From the IMG/VR virus record IMGVR_UViG_3300049847_000137, positions 1 through 27,720 of that record: a DNA stretch of 27,720 nt; one strand, written 5' to 3'. This DNA comes from a virus. Of this stretch, positions 15,165 through 25,348 are shown piece by piece (the first letter of the stretch is position 1; the number at the start of each line of letters is the position of its first letter). The notes beneath the pieces are model-generated. The model ran no database searches. It was given only the letters and a program-made list of their open reading frames with translations, and was not told the origin of the DNA. Position numbers and translations under genes: made by a program.

Positions 15165-15466
15165 GCTTTGGCCTTCACCAGCTCATCGACGTAAACCTGA
15201 AACGTCGCCAGTGCTGCGCCCATGTAGTTTTCAAGCAGCAGCGTGATCGAGTCGTCGTTGAACGCGTCTTCCAAGTCCCACCCGATCACCATGTCCTTGA
15301 ATGTCAGTATGTCGGATCGTGATCCAGACTCTTTCACCCACTCATCCAATTGCGACTTGGTGCGATGCCTGAACGTCATCACCACGTCGGCAGGATCGCC
15401 ACCGGCCACCGGTATGCCAACCTTCGCCGTGAAGGTTGGCGATGCCACGAGCTTTAACTTGCTCAC
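15155..15466 (-). CDS. Tail assembly chaperone (lambda gpG-like)
   Basis: This 103-residue protein starts at GTG 15466, overlapping the tube gene stop as GTGA. It begins with a beta hairpin (KLKLVASPTFTAKVGIP) and continues into an acidic helical region (LDEWVKESG, MVIGWDLEDAF, ITLLLENYMGAA), as in phage tail assembly chaperones. It should coat the tape measure protein before tube polymerisation and is absent from the finished virion. It ends in a Lys-rich tail (VKAKAKN) whose codons form the slippery heptamer, so most ribosomes stop here and a minority make the G-T fusion. Confidence 0.9.
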   Translation of the reverse strand: MSKLKLVASPTFTAKVGIPVAGGDPADVVMTFRHRTKSQLDEWVKESGSRSDILTFKDMVIGWDLEDAFNDDSITLLLENYMGAALATFQVYVDELVKAKAKN

Positions 15467-16113
15467 GGCGCGGCGTAACGCATCGGCTCGGACAGCAGCG
15501 ACAGCGTCAGCTCGCAGGCCATGATTTCGTTCACGGTCAGCGTCGGCGTCTTGTTCAGCGAAATCCAGCCGTTGAACAGTACGATGGCGCCGCTGGGCAA
15601 TGTGATGCGCACCGCCCGCGGCAGCCGGTCGTCGTTTGCCGCCGACGCCAGGATGTAACCGGCAAGCGACGGATCATCGGCGATGGTGAGTTGGAGCCCG
15701 AGCGGGTTCTTGGAAGTCGGAATGCGGTGTCTCGCATCGGCTTCGAGTAACTGGTACTCGGTGAATTGTTGTTCGCCGCCCGAGCTTGAGCTTTTTAACA
15801 CCTGGGTTAACTGCGTCCAAGTGAGAATCTCGCGCACCGATCCGGCGCCGCCGCCCGTAGGAAAGAGCGTGCCCGTCGTGTCGATGCCGGCAAGCGGAAT
15901 GTTATCGCTGCTCGGTGTGCCCGCTTTGACGATGCGATCCGTGAGAGCGGACCAGCCGCTGGTGACTTCCATGAAGTCGCCGTCGGCAATGTTGTGCCCG
16001 CTGGCGAGCGCGGCGATTGCCGGGTTCGCCTTTGACACAGAGGTCATTGTTTTTGCCGCGCCGTAGCTGGCAGCGATGTGGATGACGGCGCCATTCGGGA
16101 GTGAAATGCTCAT
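15463..16113 (-). CDS. Major tail tube protein
   Basis: This 216-residue protein starts at ATG 16113 behind AAGGAAA. It resembles phage major tail proteins of the tail-tube family: an N-terminal beta region (VIHIAASYGAAKTM), a segment with DGDFMEVTSGWSALTDR (about residues 44-60), a Ser/Gly-rich loop (109-114) and a C-terminal beta domain with AIVLFNGWISLNKTPTLTVNE. It polymerises into the tail tube around the tape measure. Its place between the tail terminator and the chaperone agrees. A terminator-like hairpin lies just upstream. Confidence 0.88.
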   Translation of the reverse strand: MSISLPNGAVIHIAASYGAAKTMTSVSKANPAIAALASGHNIADGDFMEVTSGWSALTDRIVKAGTPSSDNIPLAGIDTTGTLFPTGGGAGSVREILTWTQLTQVLKSSSSGGEQQFTEYQLLEADARHRIPTSKNPLGLQLTIADDPSLAGYILASAANDDRLPRAVRITLPSGAIVLFNGWISLNKTPTLTVNEIMACELTLSLLSEPMRYAAP

Positions 16114-16188: not shown

Positions 16189-17748
16189 TCAGTACAAGAA
16201 TGTGAAGTCCTGCATTGAACCACGAATATCCGTTGCCTCATCGTGCAGCGCGGTGGGTTCGCTTTCGATGATGGTCTGCAATTCCGGCGTGTTGCACAGT
16301 GTGTTCGCAATCGTCGCGGCGAGCGCGGCAATCTCGCGCCGGGTGCCGCCCCACACGTTGATCTGGAAACGCGGCCGCGCTTTGTTGGCCTGGGTGCCGT
16401 CCAAGAATTGCACCGGGTACCCGCCCACCTGTTGATAGGTGATATAGGGCATGCCGACATTGACCGGCGCGACATCCGGATACATGCGGTTCGCCACCAG
16501 GTTGCGCAGTGCGTAGAACAGTTGCATTTCGACCGTGTCGGGTACCGCGGCGCCCGCCACTGCCGCATGCACCGTATCGGTAGCGCTGACGGTTTCCGTG
16601 ATCAGCACGCGCAGTGCCTGCACGATAGACAGGGCATCTATAGCGCTGACGTTCTCCGTGATGATCACGGTCAACACCTGCATCACGGTGATGGTGTCGA
16701 TGGCGCTGACGTTCTCCGTCACGCTGGCGCTGACGTTGCCGGTCTGCCCGGCACTCACGGTGTCTATCGCCGTCACGTTTTCCGTCATGAGCGCGTTGAG
16801 AATTTGCGTCACCGTGGCGGTATCGCTTGCCGTCACGTTCTCGGTTACGCTGACGGTCGGCCCGGTGAAGGATACCGGCGTGTCCGTTGCGCTGACGTTC
16901 TCGGTGGCAGACGCTGACGATACGATGCCGCCCAGCGGCGAGTCGGTGGCGCTGACGTTTTCAGTTACCGCGGCCACGGCGGTCAGCAATGCAGAAACGG
17001 TGACTGTGACCGTCACCGGTTCCGACAGCGATACCTGTAAATCCTGCCGTACGGTTTCCGTTGCTGTCGCGGTCACGCTTTCGGTGACGGATGCGGCCAG
17101 GCTTGACGTGACCGTTTTGGATTCCGTGGCCGTCACGCTTTCGGTGACGGACGCCGGCAACGTCAATGTCGCAGACTCGGACGCAGTAGCTGTGGCGTTC
17201 TCGGTGACGGACGCGCTCAGTGTTTGACTTCCACCGCCTGCTGAATCAAAGAAAATTCCGCCAACGACACAGTTGGAACCGGTATTCGTAATCAGAATAT
17301 CGATGCTGCCGGTGAAGTCGTAGGTGTACCACACGCCATTTGCATATGACGCTTGAGCAAGGGTACGCGCAGAATCCAGCACCGTACCTGTGCCCGCCTC
17401 TTTTATCGTGATCGTTTGCGACCGGTTGCCATTATCCCAGTCGCATTGGTAAACGCTGACGCGATGCGTGCCGCTATCGTTGGGGACAATTGCAAAAGTC
17501 TGCGATCCACCTGAGTACCATGTTGACGCGATGCGGTTACTTCCGGACACGTATTGCAGGGACTTGGTGTCTGCATTAGGGTCGCCCCACGAATACAGCG
17601 ATCCTCCCGAGTTGGTCAGCGACGTGATGTACGACGGCAACACCGGTTCGCCCGACAAGTTGGCGATGTGATGCCCGTCGGCGCCATATACCCCGCGCCA
17701 TGATCCCTGCGTGGAGGAATCAGTAGCGACAAAGGTGGCTGTGCTCAC
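16189..17748 (-). CDS. Tail terminator (DUF3168) fused to repeat stalk and sugar-binding-like domain
   Basis: This 519-residue protein has three parts. Residues 1-172 look like a beta-sandwich carbohydrate-binding-like domain (QGSWRGVYGADGHHI, then RIASTWYSGGSQTF, YQCDWDNGNRSQT and VVGGIFF). Residues 179-398 are about eleven Thr/Ser-rich repeats of roughly 20 residues with core SVTENVSATDT. Residues 405-519 match DUF3168 tail completion proteins (LFYALRNLVANRMYPDVAP, PYITYQQVGGYP, RFQINVWG). Typical family members are only about 120-140 residues long. The start is GTG 17748, 12 nt after the preceding stop. The terminator ring would cap the tail at the neck, so the extra domains would project there. 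No strong internal ribosome site precedes M408. Confidence 0.82.
   Translation of the reverse strand: MSTATFVATDSSTQGSWRGVYGADGHHIANLSGEPVLPSYITSLTNSGGSLYSWGDPNADTKSLQYVSGSNRIASTWYSGGSQTFAIVPNDSGTHRVSVYQCDWDNGNRSQTITIKEAGTGTVLDSARTLAQASYANGVWYTYDFTGSIDILITNTGSNCVVGGIFFDSAGGGSQTLSASVTENATATASESATLTLPASVTESVTATESKTVTSSLAASVTESVTATATETVRQDLQVSLSEPVTVTVTVSALLTAVAAVTENVSATDSPLGGIVSSASATENVSATDTPVSFTGPTVSVTENVTASDTATVTQILNALMTENVTAIDTVSAGQTGNVSASVTENVSAIDTITVMQVLTVIITENVSAIDALSIVQALRVLITETVSATDTVHAAVAGAAVPDTVEMQLFYALRNLVANRMYPDVAPVNVGMPYITYQQVGGYPVQFLDGTQANKARPRFQINVWGGTRREIAALAATIANTLCNTPELQTIIESEPTALHDEATDIRGSMQDFTFLY
16555..17214 (-). repeat. In-gene repeats of about 60 bp coding for Thr/Ser-rich units
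   Basis: About eleven in-frame units of roughly 60 bp encode the stalk of the tail-terminator fusion. The conserved core is TEN/TES-V-(S/T)-A-(T/I)-(D/E), separated by variable hydrophobic 8-10-mers. The C-terminal units are most alike (ENVSAIDT), while the N-terminal units use TESVTATES/TATE. The copies have diverged, which suggests an old expansion rather than a recent slippage event. Confidence 0.85.
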
Positions 17749-17760
17749 GTCGCGGTTCCG

Positions 17761-18255
17761 TTAGACGAGCTTCAACGCAGCGACTCGAACAGCCGGCAGC
17801 GTAGCACTTGCAGCGTCACGGGCGTCGAGCATTGAGACGATGATATCCGCCTGCGCGTTGAGTTTTGCCAATGACATATCAGGCGCGGAGAAAGTACGCA
17901 TGCATGTGCCGCCGGTTTTGGCGTTGGTGAAATTCACCGTCACATCCATTCCGCCGTCCTGCCGCTTGACAGCATCGGCAATGACATATTTCCAGTCCGA
18001 TGCCGCCGGATCAACCGTGGTCACGGTCGCATCGCACACGGCATTGATCGCCGCGCGCTCTGCCGCCGTGCTGAGAATTGGCGTCGGCCCTTTGCGATAG
18101 ACCCCTGCCCACAGCTTGATCGCTTCACGATCTCGCAGTTCGATGGCCGCGATGAATGCGGGCAGGGATGGCGATGCCAGCAGCGCGGGCCAACTGGCAT
18201 CGACAATGGCGCCGAAGATATCGGCTTTGTTAAACGGCTTCGGGTTCACGGCCAT
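17761..18255 (-). CDS. Hypothetical virion-operon protein
   Basis: This 164-residue protein starts at ATG 18255 behind AGGAGA. It is Ala-rich and helical at both ends, with a central beta region (VIADAVKRQDGGMDVTVNF). No membrane segment, signal peptide or catalytic motif is visible. It is encoded between the beta-rich virion protein and the tail-terminator fusion, so it is probably a structural or neck-associated protein. No family is recognised. Confidence 0.68.
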   Translation of the reverse strand: MAVNPKPFNKADIFGAIVDASWPALLASPSLPAFIAAIELRDREAIKLWAGVYRKGPTPILSTAAERAAINAVCDATVTTVDPAASDWKYVIADAVKRQDGGMDVTVNFTNAKTGGTCMRTFSAPDMSLAKLNAQADIIVSMLDARDAASATLPAVRVAALKLV

Positions 18256-18284: not shown

Positions 18285-18983
18285 TTACGCGCCGGCGGTG
18301 TAGCTCACGTTGAGCGTGTCGCTGTTGTTCAGCGCCTTCGCCGTGAAGGTTCCGACACTATACAGCGTGCCGCTGGTACCGCCCTTGGTCGAGACGGAAT
18401 TCAAAAACACGCCATCAATGCTCTGCGTGTTGGCGTTGATGCTGAACACCGCCACGGCTGATGTTGCCTTGCTGCCGGAAGCGGCGGCCGCGAATGATGG
18501 CGCGACACGCGTGGACTGGCTGTAGTTTTGGTTCTCCGTCCAGCCGGCGTGCGAACTCATGGTGTCGGCGGCCGCGGGCGTGGTGGTGGCCGAACACAGC
18601 CCGATGTACCATGTGGCGGTATAGTTGACGCCAGAAAGTTCACTTTCCAGCAAATGATTTTTGCCGGCCGTGGTCACCAAGTTGCTGAACGACTCCGACC
18701 ATTTTTCCTGCATCGGGATGAACGACAGCCGGGTTTCCAAATCTGCAATCAGCGGCGCGAGCAACATTCGCTTGATGGCGCCAACGATTTTAGAGCGGCT
18801 ACCCTTCAACGCCCAAAGACGGTCTCGCAGTCGGATATATTCCGCGCGGCGATGTTCTACCGGCGCGGTGCAGGTGACCGTGTATTTTCCGTGCGCAGAT
18901 ACGTTTTCTGCGATCGCGGCGGATTTGCCGGTCGACGCGGCAAGCGCGTCGTTGGCCGACACTTTCTCGTTCATATTTTCCAT
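18285..18983 (-). CDS. Beta-rich virion protein with a helical insert
   Basis: This 232-residue protein starts at ATG 18983 behind AAGGAG. The C-terminal half (about 100-232) matches a phage structural family with LVTTAGKNHLLE, YTATWYIGLCSATTTPA, SHAGWTENQNYSQSTR and SGTLYSVGTFT. Members usually have a short N-terminus reading into KW-x-E-x-x-x-NLVTTAGKN. Here a basic helical segment of about 50 residues (EHRRAEYIRLRDRL to LETRLSFIP) is inserted between the first strand (KYTVTC) and that motif. The first 31 residues (NEKVSANDAL, AENVSAHG) look like the repeats of the nearby tail-terminator fusion. It is probably a head, neck or tail decoration protein. Confidence 0.7.
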   Translation of the reverse strand: MENMNEKVSANDALAASTGKSAAIAENVSAHGKYTVTCTAPVEHRRAEYIRLRDRLWALKGSRSKIVGAIKRMLLAPLIADLETRLSFIPMQEKWSESFSNLVTTAGKNHLLESELSGVNYTATWYIGLCSATTTPAAADTMSSHAGWTENQNYSQSTRVAPSFAAAASGSKATSAVAVFSINANTQSIDGVFLNSVSTKGGTSGTLYSVGTFTAKALNNSDTLNVSYTAGA

Positions 18984-19235: not shown

Positions 19236-19688
19236 TTACTTTGAAACGCTGGACATGCGGGCTTTCATACGTGCTTTTGCTGCTTCGATGGCCTTCGGCA
19301 TTGCTGCGAGCGCTTTGCGCATGAATGGATGCGCTGGCGCGCGCACGGTGCCGAACTCGACCATGAATCCGTAAGGGCATTTTTTGTGGTTCCAGCTCAC
19401 GTCATACACCACTTGGTCGGCGTTAGATTTGCGTTTCGAGTAAACGCGATAAATCGAGTTGCGCAGCGTGCCAGCATTGAACCAGTACTTCTGCCCGGTC
19501 TTTTTGTGGCTTGATCCGTAAAAATAGTGACCCTGAAGCGATACAGGTGCTGCCGCGCGCGCCGCATCATGGATCACCAACGCCGCGCTCGCGGCCGCCG
19601 ATGCCAACACCTGCGCCTTCACACCGCCGACGTAATTGTCGATGGCTTGTTCCACGTCGCCGCCGAACTTCTCATTGATCTGAATCAT
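19236..19688 (-). CDS. HK97 gp10-like neck / tail completion protein
   Basis: This 150-residue protein starts at ATG 19688; a TTG seven codons upstream lies in the junction with the previous gene and is rejected. Features of the HK97 gp10 family are visible: an N-terminal helix, the Ala-rich helix IHDAARAAAPVSLQGH, the segment AGTLRNSIYRVYSKRK, and the C-terminal MVEFGTVRAPAHPFMRKAL, where the EFGT and HPFMR elements are typical. It probably acts in head-tail joining or tail completion. It follows the head-tail adaptor by 13 nt. Confidence 0.85.
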   Translation of the reverse strand: MIQINEKFGGDVEQAIDNYVGGVKAQVLASAAASAALVIHDAARAAAPVSLQGHYFYGSSHKKTGQKYWFNAGTLRNSIYRVYSKRKSNADQVVYDVSWNHKKCPYGFMVEFGTVRAPAHPFMRKALAAMPKAIEAAKARMKARMSSVSK

Positions 19689-19701
19689 GGCAGTGTCCCG
19701 G

Positions 19702-20013
19702 TTAAACAAAGCGCTCGCACATCAACGTCATGTAAACAAAATCCTGACTTAACACGGCCTTGATGTTGTACGTGGTGTTGCGCCATACCACGCGCATGGC
19801 CGCGGTCACGTCTTCGCGGTAGCGCACGGTGATTTTGGTGATGACCATATCGCGCGTCGCGGACGCTGCGACGTATTCGTGGCCCTTGAAATCCTCGACA
19901 TGCGCAAAGCACGACACCAGCGTCGTCCATGCGATCACCGGCTGACCGTCGTCGTCCTGCGTCTGTGACTGCGCCTGGATGGTGATCCGCTGATCGAGTC
20001 TTGCCGAATTCAT
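19702..20013 (-). CDS. Head-tail adaptor / joining protein
   Basis: This 103-residue protein starts at ATG 20013, overlapping the stop of the methyltransferase as ATGA; the longer upstream frame lies in that gene. The opening SARLDQRITIQAQ and the following segments DDDGQPVIAWTTL, ATRDMVITKITVRYREDV and YNIKAVLSQD match the phage head-tail joining family (SPP1 gp16-like stopper or adaptor). It closes the connector below the portal. In most related phages it directly follows the gp6-like connector; here six enzyme genes separate them. Confidence 0.87.
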   Translation of the reverse strand: MNSARLDQRITIQAQSQTQDDDGQPVIAWTTLVSCFAHVEDFKGHEYVAASATRDMVITKITVRYREDVTAAMRVVWRNTTYNIKAVLSQDFVYMTLMCERFV

Positions 20014-20666
20014 GGGTTCCGCCTGAAAGCGAACGCGCCGATGTCCTCGCGCCCGGCTTCGGTTTCGTGATAGCTGCGCTCGATGAATGTCAAGCCGTAA
20101 TACGCCGCCCACTTGATCAGGCCGTCGGCAGTCCAGTAGTACAGATGCTCGCCGGGCCGGTAGTGCTTACTGCTGCGTATGTCTTTCAAGTTTTCAAAGA
20201 TCGGCAGGCTGACAAACAGCCACGCACCCGGCGCGATTTTTTCCAGCGCCAAATGCGGCTCTTTCATGTGTTCGAGCGTATCCCACAAGGTGACGGCTTC
20301 AAACTGGAATGGATCATTCGCGTACGCCTGATCTGCCTTTAGTCTACGCACCGCGGCGGGCATCACGTCGAAACCGTTCACATAGAATCCCGCCTCGCGC
20401 GCGGCGCGCACAAAGGCGCCCGATCCCGCACCAATGTCCAGCACCCATGTGCCCAGCGGCAGGTGCCGGCATAGCATTGCGCACCGCCCGTCGTTGACGC
20501 GCCGCGCTATGGGACTGTTTTCGTAGGCGGACACCTTGGCGAAATAGGCGTCATCGTAGGCCACCGGGTTCGCTTTCATGTCGGCTTGAAACGCCATACC
20601 TTGATCCTCGCAGATCAACAGGTCGTGATCTCGTTCGATCCTTGGCATGGCGATCACGTCATCCAT
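20010..20666 (-). CDS. Class I SAM-dependent methyltransferase (first of three)
   Basis: This 218-residue protein starts at ATG 20666, with GGGAGA in front and the previous stop 2 nt away. Motif I is clear (VLDIGAGSG, residues 75-83), with the acidic residue of motif II in GFDV (D100) and a later LWDTLEHM that fits motif IV of Ubi/UbiG-like methyltransferases. The C-terminal part contains SKHYRPGEHLYYWTADGL, typical of enzymes grouped with sugar or lipid biosynthesis. The substrate is unknown. Its place in a glycosyltransferase cassette suggests O-methylation of a sugar, which is inference. A DNA methyltransferase motif (DPPY/NPPY) is absent. Confidence 0.82.
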   Translation of the reverse strand: MDDVIAMPRIERDHDLLICEDQGMAFQADMKANPVAYDDAYFAKVSAYENSPIARRVNDGRCAMLCRHLPLGTWVLDIGAGSGAFVRAAREAGFYVNGFDVMPAAVRRLKADQAYANDPFQFEAVTLWDTLEHMKEPHLALEKIAPGAWLFVSLPIFENLKDIRSSKHYRPGEHLYYWTADGLIKWAAYYGLTFIERSYHETEAGREDIGAFAFRRNP

Positions 20667-20667
20667 T

Positions 20668-21303
20668 TTATTGTTTCTCCCAGTAGGCGAAGCAGTCGAA
20701 CTGCGCGCGCGTCACCTCATCCTGCGGCAGGCTGTTGACCAAATCCCACACCGACGGCTGGATCGGCCAGTATTCATGGAACAGCACGCGGCCGCACCGC
20801 CGCACCAGTTCAAAATCCGTGAAAGTGTCGTTTGCGTGATCACCGTCCGAGTACGCAAAGTCGAATTGCAAGTCCTTGATGACACGCGACTTCGCCTCAT
20901 TGTCGGCCACGTCAACAAATTTGATCTTGTCGGATAGCCCGAGAAAGTCGGCGATCTCATGTTTGATGATGCGGCTCGGATCGTCTTCGATGCTGATGCA
21001 GATCACCCGCTCGAAGTACTGCGACAGGATGACTGCGCTCATACCCTGAAATGTGCCGATCTCCAAGCAGGTACCGCCACCGGCGCCGATGCGTTTCAGG
21101 AACGGCTCGAACTCCATGCACGCGCTGCAACGCGCGAACGCCATGCGCCCATACTTGCGCAGCGTGGCTTCCCACAAGGGATTGGCCCATGCGCCGCTGG
21201 TGATGGGTTCCTTCGGTGCTGTCATGTTGTCCGGAATCGCCATACGCTGTGCCCAGGCGGACAACGGTTTGTCAGTTTTAAACGTCACTTGTTTTTGCTC
21301 CAT
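20668..21303 (-). CDS. Class I SAM-dependent methyltransferase (second, Methyltransf_24-like)
   Basis: This 211-residue protein starts at ATG 21303; an upstream in-frame TTG at 21321 is less likely. Motif I reads CLEIGTFQGMSA (79-90). Strand 2 has ISIEDDPS, with the SAM-binding acidic residues. The FAYSDGDHANDT stretch (149-160) is typical of the Methyltransf_24 group found in LPS, cephalosporin and glycan gene clusters. Four cysteines in the body have no obvious motif spacing. Its 5' end overlaps the third methyltransferase gene. The likely target is a sugar or another small polar group; this is inference. Confidence 0.8.
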   Translation of the reverse strand: MEQKQVTFKTDKPLSAWAQRMAIPDNMTAPKEPITSGAWANPLWEATLRKYGRMAFARCSACMEFEPFLKRIGAGGGTCLEIGTFQGMSAVILSQYFERVICISIEDDPSRIIKHEIADFLGLSDKIKFVDVADNEAKSRVIKDLQFDFAYSDGDHANDTFTDFELVRRCGRVLFHEYWPIQPSVWDLVNSLPQDEVTRAQFDCFAYWEKQ

Positions 21304-21778
21304 TGAATCCCACAACGGCAAAGCCCCACGCTAAATCCCGTTCGCTGTTGATCACATCGGTGAATCCCATGCTTTCCATGATGTTCACAATCTGATCGGG
21401 CCAAAAGCTGTGCAAGTGCTTTTTGCAATGCTCCGGGCGCCAGTAAACCATATCAGGATGCGGCAGGTACAGGAACAGCACGCCGCCCGGCCGGATTCTG
21501 GATTTCCAATGCTCGATTGCTTTGATCGGGTGATCAAGGTGTTCGAGGCAGTGCGACGAATAGACGAAATCCCACTGACCATCCGGTAACGCCATCGCGT
21601 CCATGCCGTGCTCACGATCCACTGCCATGGCATGCGCCAGCGGCCAATTGCCGGCGCCAATGTCCAGCCCTTGGCCGGTGCAGAAATGGTGCGCCATCGG
21701 CGCGATGAACTGCGTGGCGTTGCCATGCTTTAAATATTCCGGGTAGTTGATACCCTTGTACACGAACAACTTGTTCAC
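21278..21778 (-). CDS. Class I methyltransferase (third, type 11-like, compact)
   Basis: This 166-residue protein starts at GTG 21778, overlapping the GT29-like stop as GTGA; the longer upstream frame lies inside that gene. It has motif I GLDIGAGNWP (37-46), a short linker to FVYSSHCLEHLDHP (71-84, motif IV of type 11 enzymes) and IRPGGVLFLYLPHPD (95-109). The region between motif I and motif IV is unusually short, so part of the usual Rossmann beta2-beta3 region is missing. The enzyme is compact but keeps the motifs needed for SAM binding. The substrate is unknown and probably belongs to the glycan pathway of the cassette. Confidence 0.8.
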   Translation of the reverse strand: MNKLFVYKGINYPEYLKHGNATQFIAPMAHHFCTGQGLDIGAGNWPLAHAMAVDREHGMDAMALPDGQWDFVYSSHCLEHLDHPIKAIEHWKSRIRPGGVLFLYLPHPDMVYWRPEHCKKHLHSFWPDQIVNIMESMGFTDVINSERDLAWGFAVVGFNGAKTSDV

Positions 21779-22470
21779 GGTGCCACCCCCATTGCCTGCA
21801 AGTGATATTCGATGATGCCCGACAGTTTTTTGTCGAACAGCATCGGATATCGGTGCGCGTTCATTGCGATCCACGCGGCTTCTATTTCCGGCCGGTGCCC
21901 GATGGGGTCATTCGGATTTCCTGGCCGCCACCGCTCATCGACATTGTGAATGCGCGACGCGAAAAAATCAAAACCGGTGAGATAGACCGTGCTCGGGTTG
22001 CAGTCGATTACATCAATGACGGCGGCGAATCCCGTCGTCGGTATGTGCTGCGCCAGCAGGTCAAACTTGTACATGAATCTCGGCACGTCCGGCACGAACG
22101 TGTCACAAAACCACCACGTCGCGCGGGACTGGTAGATGTAGCGAAAATCGACGCCGTTGTTCCGGTTGTGCCGTTGATGCCACTCGGACGCTATCGGCTT
22201 GTCATTCGGACATTTGCACATGCACAGCGTCACGCCGTCGGCTTTCAAGGAATCATCCGACTTGGTGACCGACGCGCCGTAAAACGCGTAATGCACATCA
22301 CAGCGGTATCCCTGCGCGGCGCCGGTCTTGTAATTGTTGACGCGTACCACGACATCGAAGGAATCCACGAGCCCTGGCGCATTGTCCAGCACCGACGGCG
22401 CGCTGCCGACGATGGCGACGGATTTGCCTTTGAAGCGTTCCGCGACCTGCTCAAACGTGACGAAATGCAT
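21775..22470 (-). CDS. GT29/GT42-like glycosyltransferase (sialyltransferase-like)
   Basis: This 231-residue protein starts at ATG 22470 within the end of the GT9-like gene (20-nt overlap). The first part KSVAIVGSAPSVLDN and the following VDSFDVVVRVNNYKTGAAQGY resemble the L-motif of sialyltransferases (VGNSPS..., ...VIRVN). PTTGFAAVIDVI with VYLTGFDFF resembles the S-motif (TTG, then a hydrophobic strand ending GFD). It may transfer a nonulosonic-acid-like sugar from a nucleotide sugar to an acceptor in the cytoplasm. The acceptor is unknown: virion protein or host surface glycan. The family call is by motif reading only. Confidence 0.7.
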   Translation of the reverse strand: MHFVTFEQVAERFKGKSVAIVGSAPSVLDNAPGLVDSFDVVVRVNNYKTGAAQGYRCDVHYAFYGASVTKSDDSLKADGVTLCMCKCPNDKPIASEWHQRHNRNNGVDFRYIYQSRATWWFCDTFVPDVPRFMYKFDLLAQHIPTTGFAAVIDVIDCNPSTVYLTGFDFFASRIHNVDERWRPGNPNDPIGHRPEIEAAWIAMNAHRYPMLFDKKLSGIIEYHLQAMGVAP

Positions 22471-23227
22471 GCGCGACCTCGATTATTTTTTCTTCGTCCC
22501 AGTCATCCACCACATGCAGCGACGTGGCTTTGCTCAACACCTTGCGCGGCGTGATCTGCTGAATGTAGGGCTCACGCTGGTGATGCATGCCATTGGCGGC
22601 CCACACCGCCAACAGCGGCTTGTCGAAAACCTCGGCCATCGGTACGGCAAAGCTGCACTGCGCCACAATCCCGTCGCAGCAAGAACCCAGGTCGATCAGG
22701 TCTGACACGCTGGTTTTCCCGATCAGGTCGAGATCGGTTTCGAGCGGATAGACCTGTTCGCCGCCACCGATGCGCACGAGAAAGCATTCGCCGCGGATCG
22801 CATCGATCGCGCAGTTGAAACCCCCGACCGTTGGCAATAGTTCGGCGCCGAATCCGTCGGTGCGATCCATCGGCACGCGCCCGCCATGCACCAGCACCAG
22901 CGGCCGGCCTGCCGCCTGGTGACGCACACGTTCCACCAGCGCGACATTCTGGATGTGCCACCGCATGTGTAAATCACACGCGACGCCGGCGCGCGCGCAC
23001 ACATCCTGCCACTGATTGGTATACGGGTTGCTCTTGCCGTTCGTGTAGTGCGCGATGATGTCGATTTCCTGCCGGCGAAACGGCGACACGATGGCCGGCG
23101 ATCCGATGAACACTTCGGGGTAATCACAGCACACCTCGACCTTGTGACCGTGCGAAATGAGCTTGTCGACTATTGGCCGCTGATAAATCGCGTCGCCCAG
23201 TCCACTGCCGCCACGTATGCGAATCAT
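22451..23227 (-). CDS. GT9-like glycosyltransferase (heptosyltransferase-like)
   Basis: This 258-residue protein starts at ATG 23227, overlapping the Maf/DUF115-like stop as ATGA. The opening IRGGSGLGDAIYQRPIVDKL is typical of ADP-heptose:LPS heptosyltransferases (GG-x-GD). The C-terminal segment LIDLGSCCDGIVAQCSFAVPMAEVFDKPLLAVWA corresponds to the GT9 strand-helix element that binds the nucleotide sugar; the usual Ser/Asp-Ser-Gly-x-x-H pattern is altered. At 258 residues it is shorter than the usual roughly 320-350, so it may be a minimal or diverged member. It likely adds a sugar in the same glycan pathway as its neighbours. Confidence 0.72.
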   Translation of the reverse strand: MIRIRGGSGLGDAIYQRPIVDKLISHGHKVEVCCDYPEVFIGSPAIVSPFRRQEIDIIAHYTNGKSNPYTNQWQDVCARAGVACDLHMRWHIQNVALVERVRHQAAGRPLVLVHGGRVPMDRTDGFGAELLPTVGGFNCAIDAIRGECFLVRIGGGEQVYPLETDLDLIGKTSVSDLIDLGSCCDGIVAQCSFAVPMAEVFDKPLLAVWAANGMHHQREPYIQQITPRKVLSKATSLHVVDDWDEEKIIEVAHAFRHV

Positions 23228-23937
23228 CGTAGTGCGCTCGCCAGTTCACACTTCGGGAATGAATTGATCGCTGATCCAGGCGAACAGTTCAAAACCTCCA
23301 CGCCGGCATCGATCAACGCGTTTTCGCCCGAGCTCATGGACAACGCATATTCCGAATAAGCCGCTTGCGGCGTCGGCCGCGGATGATCTCCGTGCCAGTG
23401 CGACCGGCCCTCTTTGTCCTGTTGCCCGTCGAATCCGAGTAACACGATTTTTTTCGCGCCGGCCAGGACCGCCAGATTGATCGCCTGCCACCCACTGTTG
23501 CGCCCAGTCACCAGCGCGCGCGGGTCGCGCGACAGGCCGACCCCGTGATGTGGGTGATCGCGGTTTCGCAGGACGTGGACAAGATGGTCATCGAGCAATT
23601 TGTCGGCCTCGATGGTGCATTTTTGCCCGCCGAAGTCATGCCAGCGCTTGCGTACATCTTTCGCTTTTAGCCGGATGGCCGGCAGATCGATGCCCTCGGA
23701 CATCCAGCGATGCCAGCGGGCATCTGCGGCGTAACTCACGTTCGCCCATGGCGCCCACAGAAACGTGTTGTTCACCGCGATGCACTTGGTACCGGGCCAC
23801 CTTGTGGCGGCAGCGACATCAAACACTTGCGTGATCGTGAGGCTTGGCCCGCCGCCCAGCACCACCACCGTTTTACCTTTCCAGTCCGGCGCCACCGCGC
23901 TGAATCGGGAACCCGGCAAACGATAAAGCGGGCTCAT
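23224..23937 (-). CDS. Maf/DUF115 (MptE)-like Rossmann protein, probable sugar transferase
   Basis: This 237-residue protein starts at ATG 23937, overlapping the connector stop as ATGA; the longer upstream frame belongs to the connector. A nucleotide-binding-like motif is VVVLGGGPSL (24-33), followed by CIAVNNTFL. Then come SGWQAINLAVLAGAKKIVLLGFD and SHWHGDHPRP. This pattern is shared by DUF115/MptE-like proteins, a group that includes the Maf flagellin glycosyltransferases acting with nonulosonic acids. It is the first gene of the six-gene enzyme cassette and is translationally coupled to a structural gene. Its exact reaction is uncertain. Confidence 0.72.
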   Translation of the reverse strand: MSPLYRLPGSRFSAVAPDWKGKTVVVLGGGPSLTITQVFDVAAATRWPGTKCIAVNNTFLWAPWANVSYAADARWHRWMSEGIDLPAIRLKAKDVRKRWHDFGGQKCTIEADKLLDDHLVHVLRNRDHPHHGVGLSRDPRALVTGRNSGWQAINLAVLAGAKKIVLLGFDGQQDKEGRSHWHGDHPRPTPQAAYSEYALSMSSGENALIDAGVEVLNCSPGSAINSFPKCELASALR

Positions 23938-24578
23938 GCCACTTGCAGATCGACGCGTTCGATGCGCGCGAGATTCTCCGCTGCGCGCTGTATCAGTTCC
24001 ATCGTCCATTGATCGCGGTCGTACATGCTCGCCGCCCAGAGCTTCATGGCAAGAACAAGCGTTCTCGGTATCGCGTCCAGCGACTGCGGCGGGCTGGTGT
24101 CCATGTTCACGTACCCGGCACGAAATACGATCCTGCGTGTGCCGGTCGCAGACATTGGCCCACTCACCATGGCGACACGAGGCCAGCGCGTGCCGGCGCC
24201 CTCAAGCACATAAGTCGATGGGTCGATCAGCGTTGCCACGCCCGCATTATCGACTGAGTGCATCGACACCACGGACAGCACCGGCGATCGGCGCAACATC
24301 ACGCCGTTGATGTTTGACGGTGACGGCATCACGCCGCGCATCGCCGGCGTTGAGACGGTGTCGAAAAGCAGATTGTCGCCGAAGGTCAATTGCCATTGCT
24401 GATCGACCAACGCACGCCCGGTGTACTGCTCCACCCATTGCCGAGATGCGGTAATCAGCGCGTTGATGTCATCGTGCTCATCGGTCATGTCCTCGAAAAT
24501 ACGGAGGTGTCGTTTCATTTCGGCCAGCGTGATTGGCTCCAGCTCAGGCTGTGAGACGCGTTCGAGAAGGTATCTCAT
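23934..24578 (-). CDS. Head-tail connector, gp6-like (phiE125 gp8 family type)
   Basis: This 214-residue protein starts at ATG 24578, overlapping the collagen-like gene stop as ATGA. The N-terminal helical region (LEPITLAEMKRHLRI, then DDINALITASRQWVEQYTGRALV) is the signature of gp6-type connectors, including the phiE125 gp8 group seen in Burkholderia phages. The C-terminal part adds a beta domain (VLSVVSMHSVDNAGV) and a final helix (IPRTLVLAMKLWAASMY). It forms the ring below the portal. Here the stopper gene is displaced about 3.9 kb downstream by the enzyme cassette. Confidence 0.9.
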   Translation of the reverse strand: MRYLLERVSQPELEPITLAEMKRHLRIFEDMTDEHDDINALITASRQWVEQYTGRALVDQQWQLTFGDNLLFDTVSTPAMRGVMPSPSNINGVMLRRSPVLSVVSMHSVDNAGVATLIDPSTYVLEGAGTRWPRVAMVSGPMSATGTRRIVFRAGYVNMDTSPPQSLDAIPRTLVLAMKLWAASMYDRDQWTMELIQRAAENLARIERVDLQVA

Positions 24579-25348
24579 GACATCCTCACCGGCCCGGTTT
24601 TGCTCAACAGCGCACCGCCGTCCTTGCCGGGCGCACCGCTTTTAACCATGAGTTTCCAGTCCGCCGACGTGCCCGGCTTGTGGTTGGTCTTGTCGGCCTG
24701 ACAATGCCACGCCGACCCCGACCACGTGACCACGTCGCCGCAAACGAACTCGCCTTCCCGCCAGACCTCTTTGTAGATCATCGCCGGCAGACGCATGGTC
24801 TTCGTTTCGACCCGGCCGCTGGTTAAGGTTGTGCTGACGGTGAATTCTCGCGGATCAGATTCGCCCTGCTTCACAGCGGTATCCTTCACGCCGTCGCGCA
24901 TCACGCGCCAGCCGGCGGCGGACAGCGTCTTGCCGTCCAATGGGTCGGTCGCGCGGTCGGCGCGAACTTCGCCGCCGTCGTGCAGCGCGCAGGTGCCGGC
25001 CGGGTAACTGCGCGTGATGTCGATGCCGGGCAACACGATCAGTTCCGCGGCATCACGGCCCGGTGCGCCGTCCTTCGGTACCGGCAGCGATGCGATGGCT
25101 TTGGCGACCTGCTCGGCAACCATCATCGCCACGGTGTCTGGATGGATGTCCTTCCCGGGCTCGCCGTCTTTGCCGTTTACGCCGTCCTTGCCCGGCGCGC
25201 CGTCCTTACCGTTTACCGGTACCGGCAGCGCCGCCAGCATTTTGTCGAAGTCGGCAACCAGTCTATCGCTCTGCCGGACGAGTTCGCCACCGATGAACTG
25301 CTTGATGGTGGCGATCAGTTCGTCGGCGTAATTTTTCAGGTTTGACAT
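24575..25348 (-). CDS. Collagen-like protein with a sugar-binding-like domain, head module
   Basis: This 257-residue protein starts at ATG 25348 behind AAGGGA, overlapping the portal stop region by 13 nt. The N-terminal helix (1-45) is followed by seven perfect G-X-Y triplets (47-67, GKDGAPGKDGVNGKDGEPGKD-type), more GAPG units at 94-98 and 238-244, and a beta region. Residues 192-236 (YKEVWREGEFVCGDVVTWSG, then WHCQADKTNHKPGTSADWKL) look like a CBM5/12-type chitin-binding fold: Trp-rich, with a P-x-x-x-x-W end. Short G-X-Y stretches usually trimerise fibres. It probably forms head or neck fibres that bind sugars. Confidence 0.75.
   Translation of the reverse strand: MSNLKNYADELIATIKQFIGGELVRQSDRLVADFDKMLAALPVPVNGKDGAPGKDGVNGKDGEPGKDIHPDTVAMMVAEQVAKAIASLPVPKDGAPGRDAAELIVLPGIDITRSYPAGTCALHDGGEVRADRATDPLDGKTLSAAGWRVMRDGVKDTAVKQGESDPREFTVSTTLTSGRVETKTMRLPAMIYKEVWREGEFVCGDVVTWSGSAWHCQADKTNHKPGTSADWKLMVKSGAPGKDGGALLSKTGPVRMS

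What the first reader, a model, noticed from the sequence alone, without database searches (positions are those of the whole stretch)
16189..17748. Tail terminator protein carries a 400-residue extension: sugar-binding-like domain and Thr/Ser-rich stalk
DUF3168 tail terminators are usually small ring proteins. Here the domain is the last 115 residues of a 519-residue chain with a beta-sandwich-like N-domain and about eleven repeats. The frame is uninterrupted and there is no obvious internal ribosome site. Each hexameric ring would bear six stalks at the neck, like whiskers, possibly helping adhesion to glycans or mucus before tip binding.
Basis: partly seen in the sequence, partly recalled or inferred. 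Interest (0 to 1): 0.75.

Follow-up and report, generated by a model that had tools for sequence, protein, structure and literature searches.

The report
Phage tail-terminator carrying sugar-binding-like whisker
In this uncultured phage the small ring protein that caps the tail is encoded in one uninterrupted gene with a sugar-binding-like domain on a long repetitive stalk, which would put six sticky whiskers on the phage's neck; the parts are known elsewhere but joining them to the tail cap has not been seen in any relative checked.

Summary
The minus-strand ORF 16189-17748 (GTG start, 519 aa) has no stop between three blocks. Residues 1-172 form a jelly-roll domain with the fold of CBM35-type carbohydrate-binding modules; its sequence relatives lie in bacterial extracellular proteins. 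Residues 173-404 are a Thr/Ser-rich stalk of eleven 20-residue repeats (ten clear). Residues 405-519 are a genuine gpU-type tail terminator (PF11367, PDB 9lbn), the only one in the window and in the usual place before the major tail protein (MTP). In 49 of 49 MTP-anchored relatives the terminator is a stand-alone gene with a start codon at this boundary; here that codon reads ACG, with no Shine-Dalgarno before it or before M408. The stalk's origin is also clear: the same 20-residue repeat, uncatalogued in Pfam, occurs as free-standing genes beside relatives of the gene two upstream (P0004; phrog_8123), whose family includes a solved virion structural protein. So a mobile head-plus-stalk module has fused to the terminator. 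Most likely it is a neck whisker, functionally like lactococcal neck-passage proteins but anchored differently. Sugar binding, incorporation and six-fold display are inferred. The fusion rests on one contig; internal initiation at M408 is not excluded.

The parts
16189..17748 (-). 519-aa fusion gene: CBM-like domain, repeat stalk, tail terminator
17233..17748 (-). N-terminal domain, residues 1-172; jelly roll with GxWxGVYGADG motif, like CBM35-type modules
16537..17232 (-). Stalk, residues 173-404: eleven 20-residue Thr/Ser-rich repeats (ten clear, one decayed)
16192..16536 (-). Tail terminator domain, residues 405-519
16534..16536 (-). Codon 405 (ACG), where stand-alone relatives have their start codon
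16525..16527 (-). In-frame ATG (M408), only plausible internal start near the boundary; no Shine-Dalgarno
17761..18255 (-). P0002, 164-aa protein of unknown family between P0004 and the fusion gene
18285..18983 (-). P0004, phrog_8123 family; a relative is a solved virion structural protein (26la_U); marks the display module
19236..19709 (-). gp10-like neck/tail completion gene that normally directly precedes the terminator
15463..16113 (-). Major tail protein, directly downstream as in relatives

Best explanation
The gene encodes a working tail terminator that also carries a neck whisker. The C-terminal 115 residues form the hexameric ring that caps the tail tube and docks the head. The 230-residue stalk leaves each subunit at its N-terminus and carries a CBM-like head outward, giving up to six flexible, sugar-binding whiskers at the neck that hold the virion on glycans before the tail tip engages. 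The extension came from a free-standing phage display gene (variable head plus 20-residue-repeat stalk, near a P0004-type structural gene) that inserted between the gp10-like gene and the terminator and became fused in frame. Shown: the open frame, the three domains, the conserved locus, the stalk family and its usual neighbour. Inferred: translation as one chain, incorporation, outward display, sugar binding, role in adsorption.
For: Single open frame; the two other frames carry many stops through the extension. Terminator identity by sequence and fold (9lbn_K Z 14.1, rmsd 2.5, 104 residues; lambda gpU Z about 10). It is the only PF11367 match in the window and lies between gp10-like and MTP genes as in relatives. 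A start codon stands at the boundary in all 49 MTP-anchored relatives; here it is ACG, with no SD. N-domain: bacterial extracellular relatives (Planctomyces 2e-24; Verrucomicrobiota 44%); fold like CBM35 and a beta-glucuronidase accessory domain (Z 10.9, rmsd 3.0, 124 residues). Stalk: the same repeat near P0004 relatives in 19 of 80 loci against 0 of 80 MTP loci and 0 of 80 opposite strands. P0004 profile hits 26la_U 'Structural protein' at 5e-18. CBM-tipped neck fibres exist in lactococcal phages (PMC10747895, PMC6669499).
Against: Only one contig shows the fusion; no close relative with it was found. The start GTG has only a modest SD (-3.5 kcal/mol). M408 could start a terminator only three residues shorter than its relatives. 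Most of the stalk is predicted with low confidence (pLDDT under 50). In T5 an N-terminal tag left the terminator soluble and monomeric while a C-terminal tag gave fibres, and its N-terminus takes part in the subunit interface (PMC11784142), so a large N-terminal addition could disturb assembly.
Confidence: 0.55

Rival explanations
1. Mixed expression: the full-length chain and a short terminator from internal initiation at M408 are both made, and the ring contains few long subunits, so whiskers are fewer than six.
For: M408 would give a protein only three residues shorter than stand-alone relatives; some genes and relatives also have weak Shine-Dalgarno sequences.
Against: M408 has one of the weakest upstream sequences (-2.4 kcal/mol; only 3 of 47 stand-alone terminators are weaker than -3), the ancestral start codon position is ACG, and no nearby upstream stop in that frame allows coupling.
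Confidence: 0.2
2. Assembly or sequence error: the display gene and the terminator are separate genes and the in-frame join is an artefact.
For: Single metagenomic contig; all other relatives have stand-alone terminators.
Against: No single-base indel at the join restores two genes: the other frames run on into or through the terminator with no stop until near its end or beyond. Near the join only GAA407 could become a stop by one substitution, and it lies inside the terminator domain. Both flanks fit the conserved gene order, and P0004 upstream is the usual neighbour of this stalk type.
Confidence: 0.12
3. The fusion is a recent accident without a role: the extension is clipped off by protease or merely tolerated.
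For: Not found in any other phage; flexible Thr/Ser-rich stalks are likely to be protease-sensitive (inference).
Against: The frame is intact over 400 codons, repeats keep their 20-residue period, and the domain keeps its conserved motif.
Confidence: 0.13

Closest known systems
Tail terminator (lambda gpU, phiXacJX1 gp8 9lbn, PF11367/phrog_347)
   Same: C-terminal 115 residues match in sequence, fold and gene position
   Different: Members checked here are stand-alone and small; this one carries 404 extra N-terminal residues
Neck passage structure (NPS) of lactococcal phages TP901-1 and 936 group
   Same: Elongated neck-anchored protein ending in a carbohydrate-binding module (PMC10747895, PMC6669499); proposed job is the same
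   Different: NPS is a separate gene with an N-terminal collar domain, a coiled-coil fibre and a terminal CBM; here the CBM-like head is N-terminal and the anchor is the C-terminal terminator ring
'Evolved' Dit and extended MTP (TpeX) with CBM extensions
   Same: A tail ring protein gains a sugar-binding extension (PMC6669499)
   Different: The protein extended is the terminator, at the head-proximal end, not the Dit or MTP
Free-standing 20-residue-repeat stalk proteins near phrog_8123 genes (L034, L036, L038, L154, L175)
   Same: Same repeat, same period, same kind of neighbour; several carry a globular N-terminal domain
   Different: None is fused to a terminator and none carries this CBM-like head
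phiCD508 tail terminator gp53 (9gb5_H, 272 residues)
   Same: A terminator longer than usual
   Different: Its extra part is C-terminal and contacts the tail sheath (PMC11948020)

Membership tests
Tail terminator (PF11367 / gpU-like) | Sequence match over family cut-off | tested here: met
   PF11367 35.8 bits vs cut-off 24.5; phrog_347 8e-11
Tail terminator (PF11367 / gpU-like) | Terminator fold | tested here: met
   9lbn_K Z 14.1, rmsd 2.5, 104 aligned; gpU Z 10.3
Tail terminator (PF11367 / gpU-like) | Gene between neck completion gene and major tail protein | tested here: met
   gp10-like gene upstream (P0004 and P0002 lie in between) and MTP directly downstream
Tail terminator (PF11367 / gpU-like) | Hexameric ring capping the tail | not testable with these tools
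   Needs a virion structure
Carbohydrate-binding module (CBM35/CBM6-like) | Jelly-roll beta-sandwich fold | tested here: met
   CBM35 2vzr Foldseek 3e-4; 6d8g accessory domain Z 10.9, rmsd 3.0, 124 aligned
Carbohydrate-binding module (CBM35/CBM6-like) | Sequence membership in a curated CBM family | tested here: not met
   No CBM model of Pfam or NCBIfam at E up to 0.1; no PDB sequence match with the domain profile. Not filed as a CBM family member
Carbohydrate-binding module (CBM35/CBM6-like) | Sugar binding | not testable with these tools
   Needs a binding assay
Neck passage structure (NPS) | N-terminal collar domain and terminal CBM at the far end | tested here: not met
   Order is reversed and the anchor is a terminator domain; works like, not a member
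20-residue phage stalk repeat near phrog_8123 | Exact 20-residue period with E(N/S)x(S/T)AxD core | tested here: met
   Ten clear copies, spacing 20; same in L034/L036 and 19 of 80 P0004 loci
20-residue phage stalk repeat near phrog_8123 | phrog_8123-type gene nearby | tested here: met
   P0004 at 18285-18983, phrog_8123 1.4e-20

The most novel reading that the evidence does not exclude
The tail terminator ring itself serves as the anchor of six covalently attached, sugar-binding neck whiskers: a way of mounting adsorption fibres on a virion distinct from Dit, MTP, NPS and tail-tip fibres, arisen by fusion of a mobile head-plus-stalk cassette to an essential assembly protein.
Probability: 0.5. 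Interest if true: 0.65.

Novelty: new variant of a known kind. Interest (0 to 1): 0.52.

Why it matters
If true, it shows that an essential ring protein at the head-tail joint can tolerate a 400-residue N-terminal passenger, which bears on how phages gain new binding parts. The wider result is a widespread stalk repeat with interchangeable heads, found in many phages near one structural gene and absent from Pfam, that looks like a general phage display cassette.

Tried and rejected
Phage and viral-contig searches for the N-domain alone found no viral relative (the Brevibacillus hit at E 0.1 is not significant). tblastn of the stalk in phage records found nothing. Three long frames with weak PF11367 matches in Bacillota (G017, G088, G136) looked like other fused terminators; the two that were read are TldD-type peptidases, and the third, with the same match length and frame length as G017, was not read. 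Stop-to-stop frames of 200-292 aa around terminators in the MTP loci looked like extensions; the six printed in full are Arg/Gly-rich out-of-frame reading before the domain (one of them, L102, less so), and all 49 have a start codon at the domain boundary. L051 seemed to lack a terminator; it has a divergent stand-alone candidate. In 30 further MTP loci no terminator was recognised, some because the locus is cut short, so they say nothing. The P0004 model gave only a weak fold match to the GP4 fibre-tail adaptor (8jou_a Z 6.6, rmsd 3.7, 114 residues), too weak to claim. No fold could be assigned to the stalk (low confidence). Relatives of the virus record could not be drawn by kinship. No paper describing a terminator with a sugar-binding extension was found in the open library; most subscription papers are not held.

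Full report
What is there. The window is a 27.7 kb virus record holding, on the minus strand, the head, neck and tail genes of a siphophage-type virus: capsid, portal, adaptor, head closure, gp10-like neck gene, major tail protein (MTP), tail chaperone-like genes, tape measure and tip protein. The frame at 16189-17748 (minus) is open for 519 codons from a GTG 12 bases after the preceding gene.

Terminator. Residues 405-519 are a tail terminator by three sequence libraries (PF11367, phrog_347, PDB 9lbn_K) and by fold (9lbn_K Z 14.1, rmsd 2.5, 104 residues; lambda gpU Z about 10). It is the only PF11367 match in the window. The gene order gp10-like, terminator, MTP is that of L002, L006 and Variovorax phage VarioGold, except that P0004, P0002 and the extension lie in between here.

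Is a long terminator unusual? Yes. Relatives L002, L006, L016 and L018 lie in frames of 115-123 aa. In 398 Bacillota and 388 Verrucomicrobiota genomes all 20 matches over the cut-off lie in frames of 123-163 aa; two of three long weak matches were read and are TldD-type peptidases. Among 80 loci with related major tail proteins (48-73% identical), 49 terminators were recognised, and each has ATG, GTG or TTG at or within a few residues of the domain boundary. In the window that codon is ACG, one base from ATG. None of the 80 loci holds the N-domain, the stalk or P0004 within the DNA fetched.

N-domain. Residues 1-172 match bacterial extracellular proteins: a Planctomyces protein with fibronectin domains (2e-24), a Verrucomicrobiota frame of 2072 aa (44%), and proteins of Paenibacillus, Cohnella, Planctomycetota and others, sharing the motif G-x-W-x-G-V-Y-G-A-D-G. 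No Pfam, NCBIfam or PDB sequence match covers it. The model is a jelly roll; its best fold matches include sugar-binding or enzyme accessory domains: CBM35 modules, the C-terminal part of a Bacteroides beta-glucuronidase (Z 10.9, rmsd 3.0, 124 residues), malectin. A shared fold does not show sugar binding.

Stalk. Ten clear copies of TE(N/S)V(S/T)A lie at residues 182 to 384 with a spacing of 20 (one of 22), and one decayed copy; shuffles give 0.018. Tandem Repeats Finder sees nothing at the DNA level, so the repeats have diverged. The same repeat with the same period makes free-standing genes in L033-L036, downstream of a relative of P0004; in L034 and L036 the next gene is a fibre with what looks like an endosialidase-chaperone end, read by eye. 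A scan with the P0004 alignment gave 583 relatives, the best 80 kept; 19 of these have a periodic repeat gene within 4 kb, 18 of them downstream, against 0 of 80 MTP loci and 0 on the opposite strand. Some have a globular domain before the stalk: L038, L135, and L154 with an immunoglobulin-type domain below Pfam's cut-off. The repeat has no Pfam match and, in the proteins tried, at most weak matches to PHROGs, mostly of unknown function. The P0004 profile matches PDB 26la_U, 'Structural protein' (5e-18), so its family is found in virions.

How it likely works. The simplest reading is that a display cassette inserted between the gp10-like gene and the terminator and that the stalk became joined to the second codon of the terminator. 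Terminator helices lie at the periphery of the ring in R4C (PMC10276861), so an N-terminal extension can plausibly leave outward. Each hexamer would then show six heads on stalks. Lactococcal phages carry CBM-tipped neck fibres of another make (PMC10747895), and isolated NPS-CBM and MTP-extension domains bind host cells (PMC6669499), so a neck-placed sugar binder is a known strategy. Against it, in T5 the terminator's N-terminus takes part in subunit contacts and an N-terminal tag left it monomeric (PMC11784142).

Limits. One contig; no reads; no closer relative. M408 could start a near-normal terminator, but its upstream sequence is among the weakest. Display, assembly and binding are inferred.

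Noticed in passing
window 20010-24009 (minus): Six cargo genes sit between the adaptor and the head-closure gene: an MptE/sialyltransferase-like protein (weak Pfam match), two unassigned proteins, and three methyltransferases. They could act on surface sugars or on the virion; function unknown.
   Followed up: partly
L033-L036, L038, L137, L145-L147, L152, L154, L160, L175, L191, L202: A widespread 20-residue phage stalk repeat, without a Pfam match, encoded near phrog_8123 genes and in some cases carrying different globular heads.
   Followed up: yes
window 18285-18983 (minus): phrog_8123 is listed as unknown function, but the family profile matches a solved virion structural protein (26la_U, 5e-18); the annotation can be improved.
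   Followed up: partly
window 24575-25348 (minus): A 257-aa protein with collagen-like GKDG repeats between portal and adaptor, a second possible virion fibre; a relative (46% over 201 aa) lies upstream of the MTP in L102.
   Followed up: no
window 17761-18255 (minus): P0002, 164 aa between P0004 and the fusion gene, with a strong Shine-Dalgarno and no match in Pfam or PHROGs.
   Followed up: no
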